The notes under the pieces: generated by a model
Seen by the model: the letters and a program-made list of their open reading frames with translations, nothing else
What the model was told of the DNA's origin: nothing
The model's database searches: none
NCBI GenBank assembly: GCA_022181065.1
Contig: BQMY01000133.1
Location: forward strand, 1-36,564
Source: Melioribacteraceae bacterium
Lineage (GTDB): Bacteria > Bacteroidota > Ignavibacteria > Ignavibacteriales > Melioribacteraceae
Reading direction: 5' to 3'
Length of the DNA: 36,564 nucleotides
Part shown: piece after piece, positions 15,586 through 23,630 of the stretch
Position numbering within the stretch: position 1 is the stretch's first letter
Layout: each line of letters opens with the position of its first letter
Made by a program: the position numbers and the translations under genes

Positions 15586-16131
15586 TTGTACGTACCAAAA
15601 AATTTATTTTTCACAAAAGGGGTTGGAAGACATAAAGAGTATTTAGCCTCATTTGAGTTGGCGCTTAGAGATGCGAAAATTGAAAAATTTAATCTTGTAA
15701 GTGTTAGCAGTATTTACCCCATTGGGTGTAAAAAAATTACTGTTGAAAAAGGGCTTGAACATCTTGTACCCGGTCAGATTGTACATGCCGTTATGGCAAG
15801 AAACGCTACAAATGAACCGAACAGACAAATTGCCTCTTCAATCGGTGTGGCTCTTCCAAAGGATAAATCTCGCTACGGATATTTATCTGAGCATCATCCT
15901 TTTGGGCAAAATGAAAAAGTTGCAGGTGATTATGCCGAAGATCTGGCGGCTTCTATGCTGGCAACAACTCTCGGAATTGATTTTAATCCAAACGAAGCCT
16001 GGAACGAAAAAGAGCAGGTATTTAAAATGTCTGGTGAAATAGTTAACACATTTAACATTACACAATCCGCGCGTGGCGAGAAAAACGGGCTGTGGACTAC
16101 AACCGTGGCTGCCGCTATCTTGCTTCCCTGA
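15586..16131 (+). CDS. pdaD: Pyruvoyl-dependent arginine decarboxylase
   Basis: The 181-residue proenzyme converts arginine to agmatine, the first step of one route to putrescine and spermidine. It should self-cleave between Ser41 and Ser42 in [11 protein letters not shown], giving a small beta subunit and an alpha subunit capped by a pyruvoyl group derived from Ser42. Other family features are the [18 protein letters not shown] block with a conserved Glu (about residues 89-106) and a closing TTTVAAA strand. The family is frequent in archaea, Chlorobi and Bacteroidetes-related bacteria. The start is TTG at 15586, preceded by CAGGAGA. It follows tyrS by 12 bp. No agmatine-processing gene is nearby. 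Confidence 0.93.
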
Positions 16132-16135
16132 TTTT

Positions 16136-17536
16136 TTAGTCCCCTTTTTTCAGGGGACTTACTTTATCAATAATATAGAAAATCAATCCAAAGATCATCC
16201 CGACTATCATCGGTTCAAGATCATATAAAGTGGTATCGTTTAAGTACACCTCTCGAATCGCATACCATACAATACCTGCTGATACTGATGTAATCATTTG
16301 AGGAAATACAAGTTTTTTCCTGATAGCAAACTTTGGGTAATATGAAGCTATTATAGGAAATATCAGCCCGGGAATGCAGATGCTTCCGAATACATACCAT
16401 ATTTGTATTACTGATTCAAAATAAATTGACATTAAAACAGCTATTAGAGAAGATAAACCCAAACCATATTTGATATATCTGTTACTTTTAGTTTTTTCAT
16501 TCTCTTTTTTTCGGAGAGAACCAAAAACATCCTTGCCAAAAGTAACGCCACTCAAAAACAAAAAACTGTTCAGAGTTGACATGATGGTCGCGAACAGAGC
16601 CGCGAAAAATAATCCTTTTAAGCCCGGAACAAGTATCTGTTCAGCAAGCATCGGGAAAGAAAGTACCGGGTTTTCCAGATCCGGTATTGCTGCCCTCGAA
16701 TATAGTCCGGTAACAGTTGTTAAAAAATCAAAAAGCGCCCAAAATGCGACTGAGATTACGAGTCCCCATTTAGCTGTTTTTTCTGTTTTAGCCGCATAGC
16801 ACCTCTGATGAAAACCGGGATCGGCGAAAGTCCAGAGAGCAATTAAAAACCATACAAGCAAAAAGAGTGGTGATGAACCACCGGTAAGTTCAAGATGAGT
16901 TGGAGGAAGTTTCTCACTTAAAAACTCAAACCCTCCGAAGCTGAAATAAGCCGTAACCACAATGATTATAAAACCGGCAAACATAACAAAAAACTCAATT
17001 GCGTCTGTGATGATATCCGCTTTGTATCCTCCTTTGATCAAATAAGCTATCGAAAGGAAAAGGCTGATCAATATTGAGAAGAAAAGAGGAATATCAAAAA
17101 GAAGTGAAACAAGATTCCCCATCATGAGAAGATAAGGCGCAGGTGAAACTAGTATAAAAATCAAAACTGCGGCCGCGACACCTGCTCTCTTGCCAAATGA
17201 TTGATGAATTTTATCCGGAATTGTAAGAAGCGAGGATTTTCTAATTTTTTCGGCAAAAAAGAACGCGAATAATATTGCGAATATATAATAGGGTAACCCC
17301 TGCGTCACCCAACTGAATATACCATAATAGTAAGTAAACTCACCTACCCCCAGAATTCCACCATACCAGGTAGCCACGTTGGTTAATACAAAAAGGAAAA
17401 GTCCCAATTTTCGTCCAGAGAGAATATAATCCTCCTGGTTGTCAGTGGTATTCCTTCCCGCATAAAACCCGGCTGATACAATCACAACAAAGAATAAAAC
17501 AATAACTATAAAATCAAGATTCGCTAAAGTAACCAT
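16136..17536 (-). CDS. Na+/solute symporter (SSS family), candidate thiamine transporter
   Basis: The 466-residue membrane protein has about 12-13 hydrophobic segments and sodium:solute symporter (SSF) features: an N-terminal AGRNT...DYILSGRKLG loop (about residues 27-45), NVATWYGGILGVGEFTYYYG, and a Pro-His-Gln-Arg-like segment (DPGFHQRCYAAKT, about 243-255). SSS proteins couple uptake of sugars, pantothenate, proline and other small solutes to sodium. It is the third gene behind a TPP riboswitch, and its start lies 23 bp inside the thiamine pyrophosphokinase gene, so thiamine or a precursor is the most probable substrate. Predicted thiamine-linked SSS members (ThiV) exist in other bacteria and archaea. 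Family assignment is firm; substrate is inferred from context. Confidence 0.85.
   Translation of the reverse strand: MVTLANLDFIVIVLFFVVIVSAGFYAGRNTTDNQEDYILSGRKLGLFLFVLTNVATWYGGILGVGEFTYYYGIFSWVTQGLPYYIFAILFAFFFAEKIRKSSLLTIPDKIHQSFGKRAGVAAAVLIFILVSPAPYLLMMGNLVSLLFDIPLFFSILISLFLSIAYLIKGGYKADIITDAIEFFVMFAGFIIIVVTAYFSFGGFEFLSEKLPPTHLELTGGSSPLFLLVWFLIALWTFADPGFHQRCYAAKTEKTAKWGLVISVAFWALFDFLTTVTGLYSRAAIPDLENPVLSFPMLAEQILVPGLKGLFFAALFATIMSTLNSFLFLSGVTFGKDVFGSLRKKENEKTKSNRYIKYGLGLSSLIAVLMSIYFESVIQIWYVFGSICIPGLIFPIIASYYPKFAIRKKLVFPQMITSVSAGIVWYAIREVYLNDTTLYDLEPMIVGMIFGLIFYIIDKVSPLKKGD
16138..16159. other. Stem-loop between convergent pdaD and symporter genes
   Basis: AGTCCCCT (16138-16145) and AGGGGACT (16152-16159) form a perfect 8-bp stem with a 6-nt loop. 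It overlaps the stop codon of the symporter gene and begins 6 bp after the pdaD stop. Neither strand has a T-run in the right place, so it is at best an atypical bidirectional transcript-end structure. Confidence 0.4.
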
Positions 17537-18179
17537 TTTTCTCTATTGCGCGAAGTTCTCTGATAACAAATATTTTTCCACCCTCAATCTCGATATTGAC
17601 TTTGTTTCCTGTGGCTACATTACTGGTACTCTCTCTTACTCCAAACTGTAATGTTTCCTTTTTCAAGGGGTACTTGAATCCTTCTGTGGTAATGTGTGTT
17701 TCGCCGTCGAAACCGTATAGAGAAATAGTTTCACCCGGTAAAGTGGTATAGTTCACAGACCCTTCTCGTACTTCAAGGAGTGACTTCTGATGTGTGATGA
17801 AAACTTTTATCATGTCATAAAATTTGAGCGCAATTCCGAGATTACAAAATGTGTGATCGAGCCGGTCACCCGTCGCGCCGGTAAGTACAACCTCCTCAAT
17901 TCCTTCCGAAATAGCATATTTAAGGGCTTTTTCAACATCTGTATCATCCTGTCGCTCAAGATGAATCACCTCGGATTTACCATTATAATAATGAAGCACC
18001 GTCTGATCAGCCGAATCGAAATCACCGATGATGATATTTGGTGTAATTTTTAGTCTGAATAAAGAATTTACACCGCCGTCCGCGGCAATGATATATTCAA
18101 ATCCAACTGATTGAAAAAAATGGAGATCCGAAAGTTTTGGCGGATCTCCGTTTGCAACTATAATTGCGCGTTTTTTCAT
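17514..18179 (-). CDS. thiN: Thiamine pyrophosphokinase
   Basis: The 221-residue enzyme transfers pyrophosphate from ATP to thiamine, giving thiamine diphosphate. Family motifs are AADGGVNSLF (about residues 33-42), the acidic GDFDSAD block (52-58), the QDDTDVEKAL nucleotide site (96-105) and GATGDRLDHTFCN (about 119-131). The C-terminal beta domain includes the thiamine-contact region VRESTSNVA. Its ATG overlaps the TonB receptor stop codon by one base (TAATG), and its 3' end overlaps the symporter start. The three genes are therefore one tightly coupled unit under the TPP riboswitch. This fits salvage of external thiamine rather than synthesis. Confidence 0.94.
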   Translation of the reverse strand: MKKRAIIVANGDPPKLSDLHFFQSVGFEYIIAADGGVNSLFRLKITPNIIIGDFDSADQTVLHYYNGKSEVIHLERQDDTDVEKALKYAISEGIEEVVLTGATGDRLDHTFCNLGIALKFYDMIKVFITHQKSLLEVREGSVNYTTLPGETISLYGFDGETHITTEGFKYPLKKETLQFGVRESTSNVATGNKVNIEIEGGKIFVIRELRAIEKNGYFSES

Positions 18180-20656
18180 TATAATCCTACTTCAATACCC
18201 GCGTTAAAATGTCTTTCCGGACCAGGGAAGAAATCACCACCAACTCCATATGCGGCGTATAGCTCATCAAATAGGTTGACTAATCTGCAATATACCTTGA
18301 CCTCACGAAAAACAGGCTTCAGTTCAAAGCTATATGAAGCGAAGAAATTAGCTGTAGTATATGCTTCAACTTTATTATCTGTATAACTTGTTAATCCCGG
18401 GTAAAGATTGTTTAACACTCCAAGCTTCTCATCATAGTTATCAGTATAGTAGCTTCCAACGTATCTTAGCGCGATCTGAGAATAAAAACCACTGTAAGTA
18501 AATTTGGCAATCGCGTTTAAGGTTATATCAGGGAAACCGGCAATTTTATTATCCGCGAGATTTATATCAGCTACTCCCGAATCATACCCTACAAAAGTTT
18601 TACCTTCTTTTATATAATTGTTACTGTAACTTCCGTTGACTATAAACTCAAGTGTTGATGTAGGCTTAACCGATGCCGAAAGTTCAATTCCGCTATGAAT
18701 GGTACGTTCTACATTACCTGTTACCGGCTGTCCAAATCTGTCAAGTTGACCATTTTTCACAATCTCATCATCAAATGACATAAAAAACATATTTAAGTTA
18801 CTTGAAAGAAGTTCGGAACTGTACGAAGCACCAAGTTCAAAACTGTTCATAGTTTCCGGACTTACAATCGGATCGTCAAAGTTATAGGTTCCATCTGAAT
18901 TTTTATTAAACTGTGGATCAGCGCCTCCACCCGATTCAGCAGCATCGTAATAGTTTTTTAATCTTGGTTCTCTTGTAACGGTAGCCAATGCAAAGTAACT
19001 ACTGACATTATCATCAAATTTGTAGTTGATCCCAAATCGTGGATTAAAGAACGTATTGCTCAAACTAAATTCATTGTTCAGATATTTTTCATTTTCAATT
19101 TTGTAATTATGATGCGCCAATTGAATTTCAGCAAGAATATTCACCTGTTCATTTAATTGATATTCTTCATGCGCGTAAAGAGTGAATATATCTTTGCCAC
19201 CCTCGTAGTAGTAATATCTGTAATCCACAGGTACACCTGAGGGTATTCCTTCCGCGTAATTGATACTTCCCCAATGAACAGAATTATGGACTCTAATTTC
19301 GCCACCCAAAATCAGATTACCATTCTTGTGTTGTATATTCACCCTTGGAATCCAGCCATACTGTTTATTTTCTACCATAGCGCGAATTAATACGTTGCTC
19401 ATGTAAAGATTGTCAGGGTCACCACTTATGGCGAATCCATTTGAAGGTGTTAAACGAAAATATGAGTAAGGTGCCCATGAACCGTCATAATCAAAAAATC
19501 CCTTTCCAATAATTAGAAATAGCGCCGAGTTAATTTTGACATTTTCGTTTAATCTGTATTCATTAAGCAGTTCGTAATGAGGTTGTGAAAAGTTTTCCTT
19601 TTCTTCAGGTCGTCTGTCAACTGAAAAGAAATTGGTTCCCTCACCTGACCAATAGGAATAATTTTTTTTTCTCAGATCACGATTTTCAATATGACTCTTC
19701 GGCAAACCTGTGTAAACCAGTCCATCCGCAACGGGACCACCAAACAGGTTTATCTGTGTTGTAAGGTTTTCATCATATCTCACAGCAGAAAAATGATAGG
19801 ACTTGAAATCCACCCAGTTATAATCACGATATCCGCTTGAAAGAGTCTGAGAAATTCTGGCATAGAACGAATACTTTTTATCCACAAGTCCGCTCGAAAA
19901 ACTTGCTGAATATTTACGTGTATTGTAGCTACCAATCATTGAGCCGAACTTGAGCCTTGGTTTATCGCTAAATGGTGAAGTTATTATATTGATGGAACCC
20001 CCAATTGCGGGATATCCTGTTACACCGGAGCCGGCTCCTCTCTGAACCTGGATAATGCCGGTACTGCTGAGCAAGTCGGGCATGTCAAGCCAGTATAAAT
20101 TGTGATCTTCAGGATCATTCTGAGGAATACCATTGACCGAAATAGAAAGTCTTCTCTGGTCAAACCCCCTGATACTGAGATAGTTGTATCCTAACCCGGC
20201 TCCACCCTCACTATAAAAAGTAGTTGAAGGTAATGTACTAAGGAATTCAGGAATATCCTGGTTTACATAAGTTTTCCTGATTTCTTCATTCTCTATTTTA
20301 GAAAATGTCATCGGTGTGATACCTTCCTGCCCAAGTGTCGCTTCTACAAGAACGGTCTGACTGGAGATTATTTCACTCTCCATTCTGATTACCTTCTCAG
20401 ATAGTTGATTGTATTCTTCAATAGTTAAAACCACACTCTTGTACCCAAGATGGCTGAATTTAATAGTGCCCGTAAATGGTTTATCCTGCTGAAAAGTAAA
20501 ATTTCCTTGATGATTGGTGGCTGTGCCAATACTGTTTATTACAACATTGACCAATTCAAGAGGTTCGCCCGAAAGGTTTGTTACTCTTCCCTTAACTTCA
20601 TATTGCTGGGAAAAAAGCAGAATTGGGAATAATAATAAAAACAAAACAACACGCAT
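18179..20656 (-). CDS. TonB-dependent outer-membrane receptor, probably for thiamine
   Basis: The 825-residue protein has a signal peptide (about 1-17, ending LFSQ). A carboxypeptidase-regulatory-like domain follows (about 20-105, typical of this phylum), then a plug domain (about 115-235) with a YLSIRGFDQRRLSISVNGIPQND segment, and a 22-strand-type barrel to the C-terminus. Such receptors take up scarce large or vitamin-like ligands using TonB energy. The TPP riboswitch and terminator lie directly upstream, with AAGGAG 6 nt before the ATG, so expression should fall when TPP is plentiful. This matches the thiamine-regulated outer-membrane receptors predicted in Bacteroidetes. No TonB/ExbBD genes are in the window. 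Confidence 0.9.
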   Translation of the reverse strand: MRVVLFLLLFPILLFSQQYEVKGRVTNLSGEPLELVNVVINSIGTATNHQGNFTFQQDKPFTGTIKFSHLGYKSVVLTIEEYNQLSEKVIRMESEIISSQTVLVEATLGQEGITPMTFSKIENEEIRKTYVNQDIPEFLSTLPSTTFYSEGGAGLGYNYLSIRGFDQRRLSISVNGIPQNDPEDHNLYWLDMPDLLSSTGIIQVQRGAGSGVTGYPAIGGSINIITSPFSDKPRLKFGSMIGSYNTRKYSASFSSGLVDKKYSFYARISQTLSSGYRDYNWVDFKSYHFSAVRYDENLTTQINLFGGPVADGLVYTGLPKSHIENRDLRKKNYSYWSGEGTNFFSVDRRPEEKENFSQPHYELLNEYRLNENVKINSALFLIIGKGFFDYDGSWAPYSYFRLTPSNGFAISGDPDNLYMSNVLIRAMVENKQYGWIPRVNIQHKNGNLILGGEIRVHNSVHWGSINYAEGIPSGVPVDYRYYYYEGGKDIFTLYAHEEYQLNEQVNILAEIQLAHHNYKIENEKYLNNEFSLSNTFFNPRFGINYKFDDNVSSYFALATVTREPRLKNYYDAAESGGGADPQFNKNSDGTYNFDDPIVSPETMNSFELGASYSSELLSSNLNMFFMSFDDEIVKNGQLDRFGQPVTGNVERTIHSGIELSASVKPTSTLEFIVNGSYSNNYIKEGKTFVGYDSGVADINLADNKIAGFPDITLNAIAKFTYSGFYSQIALRYVGSYYTDNYDEKLGVLNNLYPGLTSYTDNKVEAYTTANFFASYSFELKPVFREVKVYCRLVNLFDELYAAYGVGGDFFPGPERHFNAGIEVGL

Positions 20657-20689
20657 TTTTAGCTCCTTATAATTATAAATTAAGGAAAT

Positions 20690-20714
20690 AAAAAAAGCCG
20701 TTTCAGGAAACGGC
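20690..20714 (-). terminator. Riboswitch-controlled intrinsic terminator
   Basis: Read on -, GCCGTTT (20708-20714) pairs with AAACGGC (20697-20703) around a 4-nt loop, followed by seven Ts (20690-20696). It stands between the TPP aptamer and the receptor gene. It is the expected expression platform: bound TPP favours termination before the thiamine operon. Confidence 0.9.
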
Positions 20715-20732
20715 CGCGTTTAAAACTCTAAC

Positions 20733-20815
20733 GCCATTTTCCTACGCTGGTATTACCCAGATCAGGTGAAAGGGTATTTTCTCAGCCGCTATTTTCTAGC
20801 AGCACCCCTAACAGC
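20733..20815 (-). promoter_or_regulatory. TPP (THI-box) riboswitch aptamer
   Basis: Read on -, the region has the conserved TPP aptamer blocks in order: GGGGTGC, GGCTGAGA, ACCCTTT-CACCTGATCTGGGTAAT in two adjoining pieces, and CCAGCGTAGGAAA. CTGATCTGG with GCTGAGA is the diagnostic TPP-binding core. The ends pair weakly as P1 (GCTGTT with AATGGC, including G-U pairs). The switch starts only about 40 bp after the transglycosylase stop codon, and no convincing terminator separates them, so its own promoter must lie in or near the 3' end of that gene unless transcription reads through. Confidence 0.96.
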
Positions 20816-20855
20816 TCTTTTTATTTCAACTGAACTAACTTAATAATTTGTTAAC

Positions 20856-23630
20856 TTAGTTCAAAATTTTCATCTTCATACCTATTTTAATTTTTGCTGT
20901 GGCAAGGTCATTCCATTCTTTCAATGAATCTACACTGGTATTATAATCTTTTGCGATTGTCCATAATGACTCCCCTCTTTCAACAACATGTACTTTACCG
21001 ATGAAAGGCTCTTCCGCTGGAGTTGGTTGAGGGGTACCTGGATAAATTATCAATTCCTGACCAACAACAATTCTACTCCCGGAAATATCATTCCATTCAC
21101 GAATATCAGATGCACGGATAAAGTATCGCTCAGCAATATGACCAAGAGTTTCATTCTTTTTCACAACATGTGTCAGCATTTTAGAGTCTTCTTTTGGTCT
21201 GAAAGTCTCTGCCGGACTTTTAGCCTTTTCACCAGTTGATGCTGCCACTGCTTCGGTAGGATCAACATTTGAATAGATGTTTAACTCCTGACCAATTTTT
21301 ATTTTATTATTGGCGAGATCATTCCATTTTCTGATGTTTCTTGAAGTTACCTTAAATTTCTCAGCAAGTTCAGAAACTGTATCATACTTTTTAACTGTGT
21401 ACCGAATCATGTTTGAGTTAATTACAGAGTTGTTATCACCGACCGAAGTAACTTTTTCATCACCATTTATAATCAGGGTCTTACCGGCTACTATTTTATT
21501 ACCCGATATGCTATTCCATCTTTTGATGTCATTAACCCCAACTCTGAACTTTTCAGCAATTTCACTTAATGAATCACCCTGCTTAATAATGTATTCTGTT
21601 TTTTTACCATCATTTTTCGGCTGATTACTGGCAACCCGGGTATCAACTTTACCGGTGAGAATTTTAAGATTTTTTCCCGCGATTATTTTATTACTGCGAA
21701 GGTTATTCCATTCGCGTATCTGACTTGATTTGACACCATAACGATAAGCGATTGTAGAAATTGATTCACCACGTCTGATTTTATGATTGATCCATTTTCC
21801 ATCGGAATTGGCATAAAGAATAGACATTTTATCAATTCGGTTAAGACTATCGAGTGCCCCGTAATATTTTTCTTTTTCTGTTGGAACGTATATTTTAAGC
21901 TCTTGCCCAACTCTGATACTGGAGGTATAAGGAAGATTATTCCAGTTACGTATATCAGAAACTCTTGTATCAAAAATCTCCGCAATATCAACAAGATTAT
22001 CACGCTTTTTAACTTTATAAACAACTTGCGCTTTATCTTCAGGAATAACAACTTCAGCAGCAGCAGTATTGTAAGTCTCTTCATATATCGCCCTGAAATC
22101 TTCGCCATTCCCATTTGTATTTACAATCAACTGATACGGTGCTGATCCGTCATCGTCGTCTTCTTCAACGGCGGGAAGTATATCTGTGTTCACAGCAAAG
22201 TCAATATCCTGAAACTTGCTGATCGGTATTTTTAGTTCAACATTCGGGTAAATACGCGATTTGGTTGAAATATTGTTAAACTTTGCAAGATGACTTAATT
22301 TCACTCCATATTTATGCGCTATTACTGATAAGCTCTCACCCGAACGCACCTTGTGAATGACAAATTGTAGTTTTGCTTCATCAGGAACACTTGAAAGATT
22401 CTCCACAAAGAAATCATAAGTACGTTTCGGTACTTTAAGGTCATAGCCTTCAGGTCTGTCTGGTGGAGTTGAATGCTGAATTAATTCAGGATTCATGTCC
22501 TTTAATTCATCAACAGATATACCGGCGCATTTTGCAAGTACATTAATATCAATCGCTTCTTCTATTTTATGGAATGTATAATCGTGAGCTTTTTCGTAAT
22601 TTATTTTTTCAAACCCGTATTTAGAAGGGTTACTACCGATCAGAGTAACCGCGATATACTGCGGTACGTAATTTCTGGTTTCTCGCGGAAGATATTTTCT
22701 TAACTTCCAAAAATCCTGCGAACCGGCTTTTCTAGCGGCGCGCTTTACTCTTGATTCGCCACAGTTATATGAAGCTATCGCCAGATACCAGTCATTAAGC
22801 GAGTAATACAAATCCCTGAGGTGCTGTGCAGCAGCTCTGGTTGCTTTTTCAGGATCTCTTCTTTCATCTGTGTAAAAATCTACATTAAGATCGTACATTC
22901 CACCGGTTGATTTCATAAATTGCCAAAGTCCTACCGCCCTCGCCCAAGAACGAGCTGACGGATTAAGTCCACTTTCAGGCATACTTAAAAATACCAGCTG
23001 CTGAGGTACTTTTTCTTCCGCGAAAATTCTTGCCATCATCGGAAAGTACTTGCCTGATCTTTCAAGCCACACTTCCATGTGTCGCCTTCCCCTGCCGGTA
23101 AAATATTCAATATATTTTTCTACATATCTGTTTACTTCTAACGGAAAATCACCTACAACAATTGTTTCGGTATTGGAAGGGATATCCTCTTCATCCTCAT
23201 CATATGTCAAATTGAGTTCAGGTATTTTCTTGGAGAGGAATTCTTCAAGAGCAAAAACCGAGGCGTTAGCAGGCAATTCATCGAGCGAATTGATATAACG
23301 CTGATAAGCTTCCAGAATTGCGCTTTCCAGTTCAACATAGGCCTCATTTTCATCAATGTCCGGATAGTAACTCAACTTACTGATAGTATTAAGCGAATTG
23401 TTGTAGGAGTTTAATGCACTGTCAATTTGGTTTTCATTTTGATATTTTAACGCATCCAGATAATTTATACGAGCTTCTTCCAGTAGATCTCCAACAATCA
23501 CGGAGGGATTTACCACCGCAACAGAATCTGCGCCAAAACTGTCATCCGAACCCACAAACGGTTCAAAATAGGAACAACCCGTAAATGAAAACAAAACTAA
23601 TACAAACAGTATCCCGGCTCTTTTTCTCAC
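20856..23630 (-). CDS. MltD-like lytic transglycosylase lipoprotein with seven LysM domains
   Basis: The 924-residue protein begins with a lipoprotein signal (FSFTGC, lipobox Cys19). After a helical region (about 45-200) comes an SLT/GEWL-fold lytic transglycosylase domain (about 200-345) with catalytic Glu219 in [13 protein letters not shown] and the [10 protein letters not shown] motif. Seven LysM peptidoglycan-binding repeats follow from about residue 423 to the end; each has a W/F-N-N/D-x-I/L core and an IxxGQxLxI finish. Typical MltD has two or three LysM repeats, so this array is long. It cleaves glycan strands, forming 1,6-anhydromuramic ends, for wall remodelling. It is monocistronic in appearance, with the thiamine operon downstream. 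Confidence 0.93.

What the first reader, a model, noticed from the sequence alone, without database searches (positions are those of the whole stretch)
16136..20815. TPP riboswitch operon pairs a TonB receptor and thiamine pyrophosphokinase with an SSS-family symporter
Seen: a complete TPP aptamer and terminator, then three coupled genes (1-bp and 23-bp overlaps) for a TonB receptor, ThiN and an SSS symporter. Known: Bacteroidetes thiamine salvage usually uses an outer-membrane receptor with the PnuT permease and a ThiN-type kinase; an SSS-family member (ThiV) has been predicted in other lineages. Inferred: here a sodium symporter takes the place of PnuT, giving an envelope-spanning thiamine route from outer membrane to TPP that appears little described in this group.
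Basis: partly seen in the sequence, partly recalled or inferred. Interest (0 to 1): 0.75.

Follow-up and report, generated by a model that had tools for sequence, protein, structure and literature searches.

The report
Riboswitch-controlled thiamine import operon with symporter
This stretch is a vitamin B1 (thiamine) scavenging operon in which a sodium-symporter-type protein sits where related bacteria carry the thiamine permease PnuT, and that arrangement turns out to be the rule in a bacterial order that mostly seems unable to make the vitamin itself.

Summary
The genome (rated 100% complete; Ignavibacteriales by its nearest named relatives) has no PnuC/PnuT-family match, no ThiC, no TMP-synthase match and one TPP riboswitch. 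In the order, 141 of 164 genomes have the symporter and 0 of 164 a PnuC-family gene over cut-off; in 114 the symporter lies 3.1-4.1 kb downstream of a riboswitch. In 395 genomes of the phylum, the symporter clade (114) and the PnuC family (157) never co-occur. In one family PnuT sits in the symporter's slot of the same operon, with sister receptors. So the symporter most likely imports thiamine, probably with sodium; transport, substrate and ion are untested. The architecture is not new in print: the same trio was reported in Caldithrix abyssi (PMC5317091), and other SSS proteins are known as thiamin/HMP transporters. New here are its order-wide spread, the exclusion of the PnuC family and the in-place exchange.

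The parts
20722..20819 (-). TPP riboswitch aptamer (RF00059)
   Evidence: 71.6 bits, E 2.3e-12, model 1-105 of 105; the only TPP riboswitch match in the 4.9 Mb genome
20733..20742 (-). stretch that includes the 3' strand of stem P1 and can alternatively pair with the terminator's 5' arm (antiterminator)
   Evidence: duplex with 20706-20714 computed at -9.1 kcal/mol, nine pairs with one bulge; terminator hairpin -9.3; P1 duplex -5.6
20696..20715 (-). intrinsic-terminator-like hairpin followed by a T run
   Evidence: 8 pairs, loop of 4, tail TTTTTTATTT; terminator-like hairpin within 110 nt after the aptamer in 46 of 59 named loci that hold an aptamer, 1.4 expected from shuffles
18179..20656 (-). 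TonB-dependent outer-membrane receptor, 825 aa (CarbopepD_reg_2, Plug, beta-barrel)
   Evidence: Pfam matches; among solved structures only one weak match, to a 93-residue chain called TonB-dependent receptor
17514..18179 (-). thiamine pyrophosphokinase ThiN, 221 aa; overlaps the receptor gene by 1 bp
   Evidence: PF04263 100.9 bits, PF04265 40.3 bits, TIGR01378 166.4 bits over cut-off 76.4; matches solved thiamine pyrophosphokinases
16136..17536 (-). SSS-family (PF00474) symporter, 466 aa, proposed inner-membrane thiamine importer; overlaps ThiN by 23 bp
   Evidence: PF00474 115.4 bits; AlphaFold model pLDDT 89.5, nearest solved fold human choline transporter CHT1, Z 39.1

Best explanation
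It is a single-transcript thiamine salvage system. The TonB-dependent receptor brings thiamine (or a thiamine phosphate) across the outer membrane (inferred). The SSS symporter carries free thiamine across the inner membrane, most likely driven by sodium (inferred). ThiN turns it into TPP (inferred from strong family membership). When TPP is plentiful it binds the leader RNA, P1 closes, the terminator forms and transcription stops; when TPP is scarce the P1 3' strand pairs with the terminator arm and the operon is read (the RNA anatomy is shown, the regulation is inferred). The symporter does the job that PnuT does in other Bacteroidota and replaces it gene for gene.
For: Anatomy and overlaps. 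Genome: 0 PnuC-family matches, 0 ThiC, 0 TMP-TENI matches at E 0.001 and one TPP riboswitch in a genome rated 100% complete, so the cell looks unable to make thiamine and this is its only riboswitch-marked route. Order: TPP riboswitch 146 of 164, symporter 141 of 164, PnuC family over cut-off 0 of 164, ThiC 6 of 164; in 114 genomes symporter and riboswitch lie on one contig, same strand, 3066-4090 bp apart, and among the 150 riboswitch places listed no genome has both on one contig but apart. Exclusion: 0 genomes shared between 114 with the symporter clade and 157 with the PnuC family, of 395; 45 expected. In-place exchange: riboswitch, receptor, ThiN, PnuC-family gene in that order in L258 and L259; the L258 receptor is sister (100/99) to the receptor of the symporter-type operon L097 of the same family, 61% identical. 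Residues, hand-read from the profile alignment: W57, Y83 (Y or F) and W380 fall on CHT1 W62, Y91 and W406, which line the choline site (counts); thiamine also bears a quaternary nitrogen (general knowledge). S320 and T321 fall on the CHT1 Na2 pair S346/S347.
Against: No transport, binding or expression data exist for this protein. Three of the six aromatic residues around choline in CHT1 are not kept (W141 falls on S131, W254 on D239, Y67 in a gap). W57, Y83 and D239 are also present in the sister clade without ThiN, and W235 and W380 also in 5 and 4 of 7 outgroup SSS rows, so no single residue marks thiamine. CHT proteins are near neighbours of other SSS proteins of this genome too. PnuC-family presence is not proof of PnuT: only 7 of 20 fetched PnuC loci have ThiN nearby. 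Presence and absence across a phylum are not independent. Two of 80 named loci (L222, L241) carry the symporter with no ThiN match in about 6 kb on either side. ThiBPQ, ThiT, ThiXYZ, YkoEDC, CytX and ThiW were not searched for.
Confidence: 0.82

Rival explanations
1. The symporter imports a thiamine precursor (HMP or a degradation product), like ThiV in SAR11, and not thiamine itself.
For: ThiV/SSSP of SAR11 is an SSS protein under a TPP riboswitch and the likely carrier of the HMP uptake measured in the organism (PMC11452348).
Against: HMP is useless without the TMP synthase (general knowledge); no TMP-TENI match at E 0.001 in the own genome, and in the order the 10 strong matches (59.7-214.3 bits) lie in 7 of 164 genomes. 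The gene partner is ThiN. A PnuC-family gene takes its slot in relatives. The TM3 aspartate reported for HMP/thiamin symporters in PMC11452348 has no evident counterpart: residues 112-150 hold one acidic residue, D148.
Confidence: 0.07
2. The symporter carries an unrelated solute (for example choline or another organic cation) and is only co-transcribed.
For: Closest solved relatives are choline transporters, human CHT1 and bacterial sfCHT; SSS substrates are diverse; a sister clade lies away from ThiN, with a CDP-alcohol phosphatidyltransferase gene next door in the four loci where that neighbour was scanned.
Against: Conserved overlap with ThiN and place in the operon; exclusion with the PnuC family; in-place exchange; three of the six aromatic residues around choline in CHT1 are missing.
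Confidence: 0.09
3. The symporter clade and the PnuC family avoid each other only because of shared ancestry, not because they do the same job.
For: Most families hold only one type, and 13 of 20 fetched PnuC loci have no ThiN nearby, so some may be nicotinamide riboside transporters.
Against: Two families (f10, f32) hold ThiN-linked symporters in some genomes and PnuC-family genes in others, and in f10 the exchange is in one operon slot with sister receptors.
Confidence: 0.12

Closest known systems
TPP riboswitch, TonB receptor, sodium-solute symporter and thiamin pyrophosphokinase locus of Caldithrix abyssi (Cabys_3975-3977; PMC5317091, passages seen)
   Same: Same three gene kinds behind a TPP riboswitch, read there as a thiamine transport locus in a likely thiamine auxotroph.
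   Different: One genome of another lineage; the passages credit the receptor with transport and do not discuss the symporter as a PnuT replacement. Whether its symporter belongs to the same clade was not tested.
OMthi / PnuT / tnr3 thiamine acquisition operons of gut Bacteroidetes (PMC5613172, passages seen)
   Same: TPP riboswitch, TonB-dependent receptor, inner-membrane transporter and a thiamine-to-TPP enzyme gene.
   Different: Inner-membrane transporter is PnuT (PF04973) there and an SSS protein (PF00474) here; 109 of the gut Bacteroidetes genomes surveyed there also hold a biosynthetic operon.
ThiV / SSSP (SAR11, Methylobacillus, algae; PMC11452348 passages and section 18, PMC4260697 passages)
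   Same: SSS-family protein under a TPP riboswitch.
   Different: HMP is the likely substrate in SAR11; other members lie with biosynthesis genes; the TM3 aspartate signature was not seen here. A tree with ThiV sequences could not be built.
Dur31 / SSSQ, fungal SSS thiamin transporter (PMC5997356, start of abstract and passages seen)
   Same: An SSS protein reported as a thiamin transporter and regulated by a TPP riboswitch, so the fold can carry thiamin.
   Different: Eukaryotic, no TonB receptor; sequence relation to this clade not tested.
CHT choline transporters (human CHT1, PMC11589582; bacterial sfCHT, PMC13220886; passages seen)
   Same: Closest solved structures (Z 39.1, 19% identity); W62, Y91 and W406 of the choline site and the Na2 hydroxyl pair have counterparts.
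   Different: W141 and W254 fall on S131 and D239, and Y67 in a gap; TM1 loop two residues shorter in the profile alignment.

Membership tests
TPP riboswitch (RF00059) | Covariance-model score above gathering threshold, full-length aptamer | tested here: met
   71.6 bits against 54.3, model 1-105
Transcription-terminating TPP switch | Terminator hairpin mutually exclusive with an antiterminator that uses the P1 3' strand | tested here: met
   Terminator 20715-20696; alternative duplex 20742-20733 with 20714-20706. Sequence level only; switching was not measured
Thiamine pyrophosphokinase ThiN | TPK catalytic and thiamine-binding domains; equivalog model over cut-off | tested here: met
   PF04263, PF04265, TIGR01378 166.4 over 76.4 bits
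TonB-dependent receptor | Plug and TonB-dependent barrel domains | tested here: met
   PF07715 43.9 bits, PF00593 85 bits, both over cut-off
OMthi (BT2390-type thiamine receptor) | Orthology with BT2390 | not tested
   BT2390 sequence was not fetched
SSS / SLC5 family | PF00474 over cut-off, SSS (LeuT-type) fold | tested here: met
   115.4 bits against 22.8; model Z 39.1 to CHT1, 37.1 to SiaT
SSS / SLC5 family | Sodium site Na2: paired hydroxyl residues | tested here: met
   S320 in 70 of 70 and T or S at 321 in 70 of 70 ThiN-linked rows, on CHT1 S346/S347 by the alignment
SSS / SLC5 family | Sodium-dependent transport measured | not testable with these tools
   needs an uptake assay
PnuT (PnuC family, PF04973) | PF04973 domain | tested here: not met
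   symporter matches PF00474 only; no PF04973 match in the genome
PanF pantothenate symporter (TIGR02119) | Equivalog cut-off 328.05 bits | tested here: not met
   109.8 bits
PutP proline symporter (TIGR02121) | Equivalog cut-off 515.5 bits | tested here: not met
   86 bits
ThiV/SSSP HMP/thiamin symporter | Branches with ThiV/SSSP sequences | not tested
   no sequence known to be ThiV was obtained
ThiV/SSSP HMP/thiamin symporter | Tyrosine in TM2, aspartate in TM3, phenylalanine in TM6 (SiaT positions 78, 139, 254; PMC11452348) | tested here: inconclusive
   residues 112-150 hold no acidic residue but D148; Y83/Y84 and F242 exist, but no alignment to SiaT was printed, so positions are not certain
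CHT choline transporter | Aromatic residues around choline: W62, Y67, Y91, W141, W254, W406 | tested here: not met
   W57, Y83, W380 match three; W141 and W254 fall on S131 and D239, Y67 in a gap

The most novel reading that the evidence does not exclude
The ThiN-linked symporters are a separate family of thiamine-specific sodium symporters, neither ThiV/SSSP nor choline transporters, which hold the quaternary thiazolium with a partial choline-type aromatic cage (W57, Y83, W380) and an invariant aspartate (D239), and which have been exchanged with PnuT in one operon slot more than once. A sister clade away from ThiN lacks W235 and W380 and may carry something else.
Probability: 0.44. Interest if true: 0.6.

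Novelty: new member of a known kind. Interest (0 to 1): 0.46.

Why it matters
It names a likely thiamine importer for an order of environmental bacteria in which thiamine synthesis genes are rare and where family models say only 'sodium/solute symporter'. It offers a natural experiment, two unrelated inner-membrane carriers swapped inside one riboswitch operon, and residues (W57, W380, D239, W235) to test how an SSS protein might recognise thiamine. Genome-based predictions of vitamin B1 dependence that look only for PnuT, ThiT or ABC importers would miss these organisms.

Tried and rejected
Precursor (HMP) import: rejected as the main reading because the genome has no ThiC or TMP-TENI match. 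PanF/PutP identity: rejected by equivalog cut-offs. A second riboswitch-controlled transporter in the genome: one TPP riboswitch only. Six genomes of the order have a riboswitch place away from the symporter although another is linked (G137, G133, G078, G021, G022, G136); by coordinates those of G137, G133, G021, G022 and G136, and both of G138, lie within about 4 kb of strong ThiC and/or TMP-TENI matches, so they look biosynthetic; the one of G078, at a contig start, was not examined.

Plasmid search for a ThiV relative: 46 records, all under 60% identity; the highest-scoring one, on a Clostridioides difficile plasmid, has no thiamine gene among its annotated neighbours. Attempts to print an alignment to SiaT by way of two paralogues failed because other chains ranked higher. 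A scan of the symporter against the PADLOC library was beside the point and empty. In 20 TPK neighbourhoods and the shorter L298, from the 21 genomes whose symporter is not next to ThiN, no TPP riboswitch was found with model R1. Rfam found no riboswitch in 13 symporter loci, 12 of them without ThiN.

Rows dropped: four genomes with only weak SSS matches (E 1e-31 to 1e-39) were left out of the 118 to give 114. One search lists 150 riboswitch places and says more are not listed, so the linkage rests on 150 places from 143 of 146 genomes. Of 74 symporter genomes outside the order, 73 loci were fetched (G167, two fragments, was not). L146 and L158 (open at a contig end) are missing from the symporter tree of 99 rows. 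In that tree L241 and L245 were labelled 'linked' although no ThiN is seen in the stretches held; they were taken out of the residue counts (70 rows). The receptor tree labels L169 'SSS_operon' although its contig ends in ThiN. Model R1 was built from 22 aptamers of the order itself.
Full report
WHAT IS THERE. The window holds, on the minus strand, a TPP aptamer (20722-20819, 71.6 bits), a terminator-like hairpin (20715-20696) and three genes: TonB-dependent receptor (18179-20656), ThiN (17514-18179) and an SSS symporter (16136-17536). The leader has the parts of a terminating off-switch: 20742-20733, which includes the P1 3' strand, can pair with the terminator's 5' arm (20714-20706) at -9.1 kcal/mol, against -9.3 for the terminator hairpin and -5.6 for the P1 duplex. 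In 46 of 59 named relatives with an aptamer a terminator-like hairpin follows within 110 nt, against 1.4 expected from shuffles. That the switch acts this way is inferred.

WHOSE GENOME. Of the best 80 relatives of the symporter in named genomes, 55 bear Ignavibacteria-type titles (Ignavi-, Meliori-, Stygiobacter), 18 'Bacteroidetes/Bacteroidota bacterium' and 7 others, at up to 60% identity. The order is therefore taken to be Ignavibacteriales (inference; taxonomy entry).

THIAMINE METABOLISM OF THE CELL. One TPP riboswitch, no PnuC-family match, no ThiC, no TMP-TENI match at E 0.001. The same family searches rang in 10, 5, 13 and 11 of 14 control genomes. Six further SSS matches in the genome are at most 29% identical to this protein. 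So the cell looks like a thiamine auxotroph with this operon as its only riboswitch-marked route. ABC and ThiT importers were not searched.

THE ORDER. Of 164 genomes: TPP riboswitch in 146, symporter at E 1e-40 or better in 141, PnuC family over cut-off in 0, with 3 weak matches below it, ThiC in 6, TMP-TENI over cut-off in 9, of which 7 hold the 10 strong matches of 59.7-214.3 bits. In 114 genomes the symporter lies 3066-4090 bp downstream of a riboswitch on the same strand. In the other 27 with a symporter the two lie on different contigs or no riboswitch place is listed; in none do both lie on one contig but apart (150 listed places). Twelve genomes with a listed riboswitch have no symporter match at 1e-40.

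NAMED LOCI. Of the 80 named loci, 74 hold a ThiN match with the symporter and 70 the order receptor-ThiN-symporter on one strand; ThiN and symporter overlap in 67 of the 74, by 14 or 23 bp in 49. An aptamer was found in 59 of 80 with a model built from the order's own aptamers. Of the six without ThiN, four begin at or near a contig end; L222 and L241 (a WOR-3 MAG) are real exceptions.

THE PHYLUM. In 395 genomes sampled across the phylum, 118 have a symporter match at 1e-30; the scores break between 196.7 and 138.9 bits, and 114 genomes lie above the break. Of 73 loci fetched outside the order, 52 have ThiN in the stretch and 21 do not. A search of 80 fetched stretches gave 27 aptamers: seven in the extra stretches L164-L170 and 20 in symporter loci, all 20 with a receptor match, though in L092 the aptamer lies 2.5 kb above the receptor and in L123 the receptor comes last. 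ThiN-symporter pairs with neither receptor match nor aptamer in the stretches held occur in families f21, f31, f32 and f47.

EXCLUSION AND EXCHANGE. PnuC-family genes over cut-off are in 157 of the 395 genomes. None of the 114 symporter genomes is among them, 45 expected if independent; the overlap is therefore also 0 for the 93 left after taking out the 21 of the ThiN-free clade. Lineages are not independent, so I put no weight on the p-value. More telling: families f10 and f32 hold ThiN-linked symporters in some genomes and PnuC-family genes in others (f6 also holds both types, but its symporter is of the ThiN-free clade). In f10, L258 and L259 carry riboswitch-receptor-ThiN-PnuC-family gene in the order in which L094, L095 and L097 carry riboswitch-receptor-ThiN-symporter. 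The receptor of L258 is sister to that of L097 (100/99, 61% identity), and L259 joins the two (96/91). The simplest reading is that the inner-membrane carrier was exchanged while receptor and kinase stayed. Against over-reading: only 7 of 20 fetched PnuC loci have ThiN nearby, five of them (f32) on the opposite strand, and the seven loci of f6 and f17 have none.

TWO SYMPORTER CLADES. In a tree of 99 rows, 20 of the 21 ThiN-free loci (L158 is not in the tree) form one clade with 100/100 support; L241, also without ThiN, lies elsewhere, at the base of the order's branch. In the four of these loci where the adjacent gene of about 180 aa was scanned (L112, L149, L151, L155) it is a CDP-alcohol phosphatidyltransferase. 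All 21 genomes have a TPK elsewhere. The clades differ at W76 (70 of 70 linked rows, 10 of 20 ThiN-free), W235 (65 of 70; Q in 20 of 20), W380 (70 of 70; 0 of 20) and position 131 (S/T/N in 70 of 70; I/V/L in 17 of 20). But W76, W235 and W380 also occur in 7, 5 and 4 of the 7 outgroup rows, while W57, Y58 and D239 are shared by both clades and absent from the outgroup rows. So the residues separate the two clades without proving what either carries.

MECHANISM. The AlphaFold model (pLDDT 89.5, pTM 0.88, 35 sequences) is nearest to human CHT1 (Z 39.1, rmsd 3.1, 461 aligned, 19% identity), then SiaT and SGLT1; profile search also puts CHT proteins first. As a control, two other SSS proteins of the same genome also have CHT or SGLT1 as best solved match, so nearness to CHT is not special to this one. 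In CHT1 six aromatic residues surround choline, W62, Y67, Y91, W141, W254 and W406 (PMC11589582). Hand-read from the alignment, W62, Y91, W141, W254 and W406 fall on W57, Y83, S131, D239 and W380, and Y67 in a gap: three of six kept. The Na2 hydroxyls S346/S347 fall on S320/T321, and of the Na3 residues D188 falls on D178 (D in 58, N in 12 of 70) and D349 on N323 (D in 30, N in 27 of 70). My reading, not shown: a sodium-driven importer whose partial aromatic cage plus D239 suits thiamine's quaternary thiazolium.

LITERATURE. Seen in passages: Caldithrix abyssi has a TPP riboswitch, TonB receptor, sodium-solute symporter and thiamin pyrophosphokinase at one locus (PMC5317091). Gut Bacteroidetes use OMthi and PnuT (PMC5613172). 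ThiV/SSSP in SAR11 is the likely HMP symporter (PMC11452348, passages and section 18). Algal SSSF/SSSP/SSSQ are riboswitch-linked (PMC4260697). Fungal Dur31 is reported as a thiamin transporter of the SSS kind (PMC5997356). ThiV is listed among B1 transporters in a gut-genome survey (PMC6593275). Kryptonia genomes lack thiamine synthesis (PMC4737851). Passages of PMC12442306, PMC9530715 and PMC10409787 did not mention such an operon. Rodionov 2002 is known to me only by citation in these papers. In the listed results (lists capped at 10-20 rows, of up to 1,599 papers) I saw no title or abstract start on an SSS symporter replacing PnuT or on this operon in Ignavibacteriales; the library holds only open-licence papers.

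VERDICT. Observation confirmed; interpretation supported by comparative genomics, unproven in biochemistry. The operon kind is known and its symporter version is in print once; the order-wide spread with exclusion of the PnuC family and in-place exchange is the new part.

Noticed in passing
L112, L149, L151, L155 (symporter loci without ThiN): A sister clade of the symporter sits beside a CDP-alcohol phosphatidyltransferase gene and not ThiN, with Q at 235 and no Trp at 380; its substrate is unknown.
   Followed up: partly
L164, L165, L166, L167, L168, L170: A few Ignavibacteriales genomes carry a TPP riboswitch within about 4 kb of strong ThiC and/or TMP-TENI matches, the main sign of thiamine synthesis in the order.
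   Followed up: partly
L241 and L245: Relatives of the symporter (46% identity) occur in MAGs labelled candidate division WOR-3 and Neomarinimicrobiota, which suggests transfer between phyla or mis-binned contigs.
   Followed up: no
L123:4991-9653: One genome (family f51) has the riboswitch before ThiN-symporter with the receptor matches downstream, a different gene order.
   Followed up: no
L267, L270, L271, L272, L275: In family f32 PnuC-family genes lie close to a ThiN gene on the opposite strand, a PnuT-ThiN pairing without riboswitch match.
   Followed up: no
window 15586-16131 (+): A pyruvoyl-dependent arginine decarboxylase gene converges on the symporter gene, 4 bp between the two stop ends.
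   Followed up: no
window 20856-23630 (-): Upstream of the riboswitch on the same strand lies a transglycosylase gene with seven LysM stretches (924 aa).
   Followed up: no
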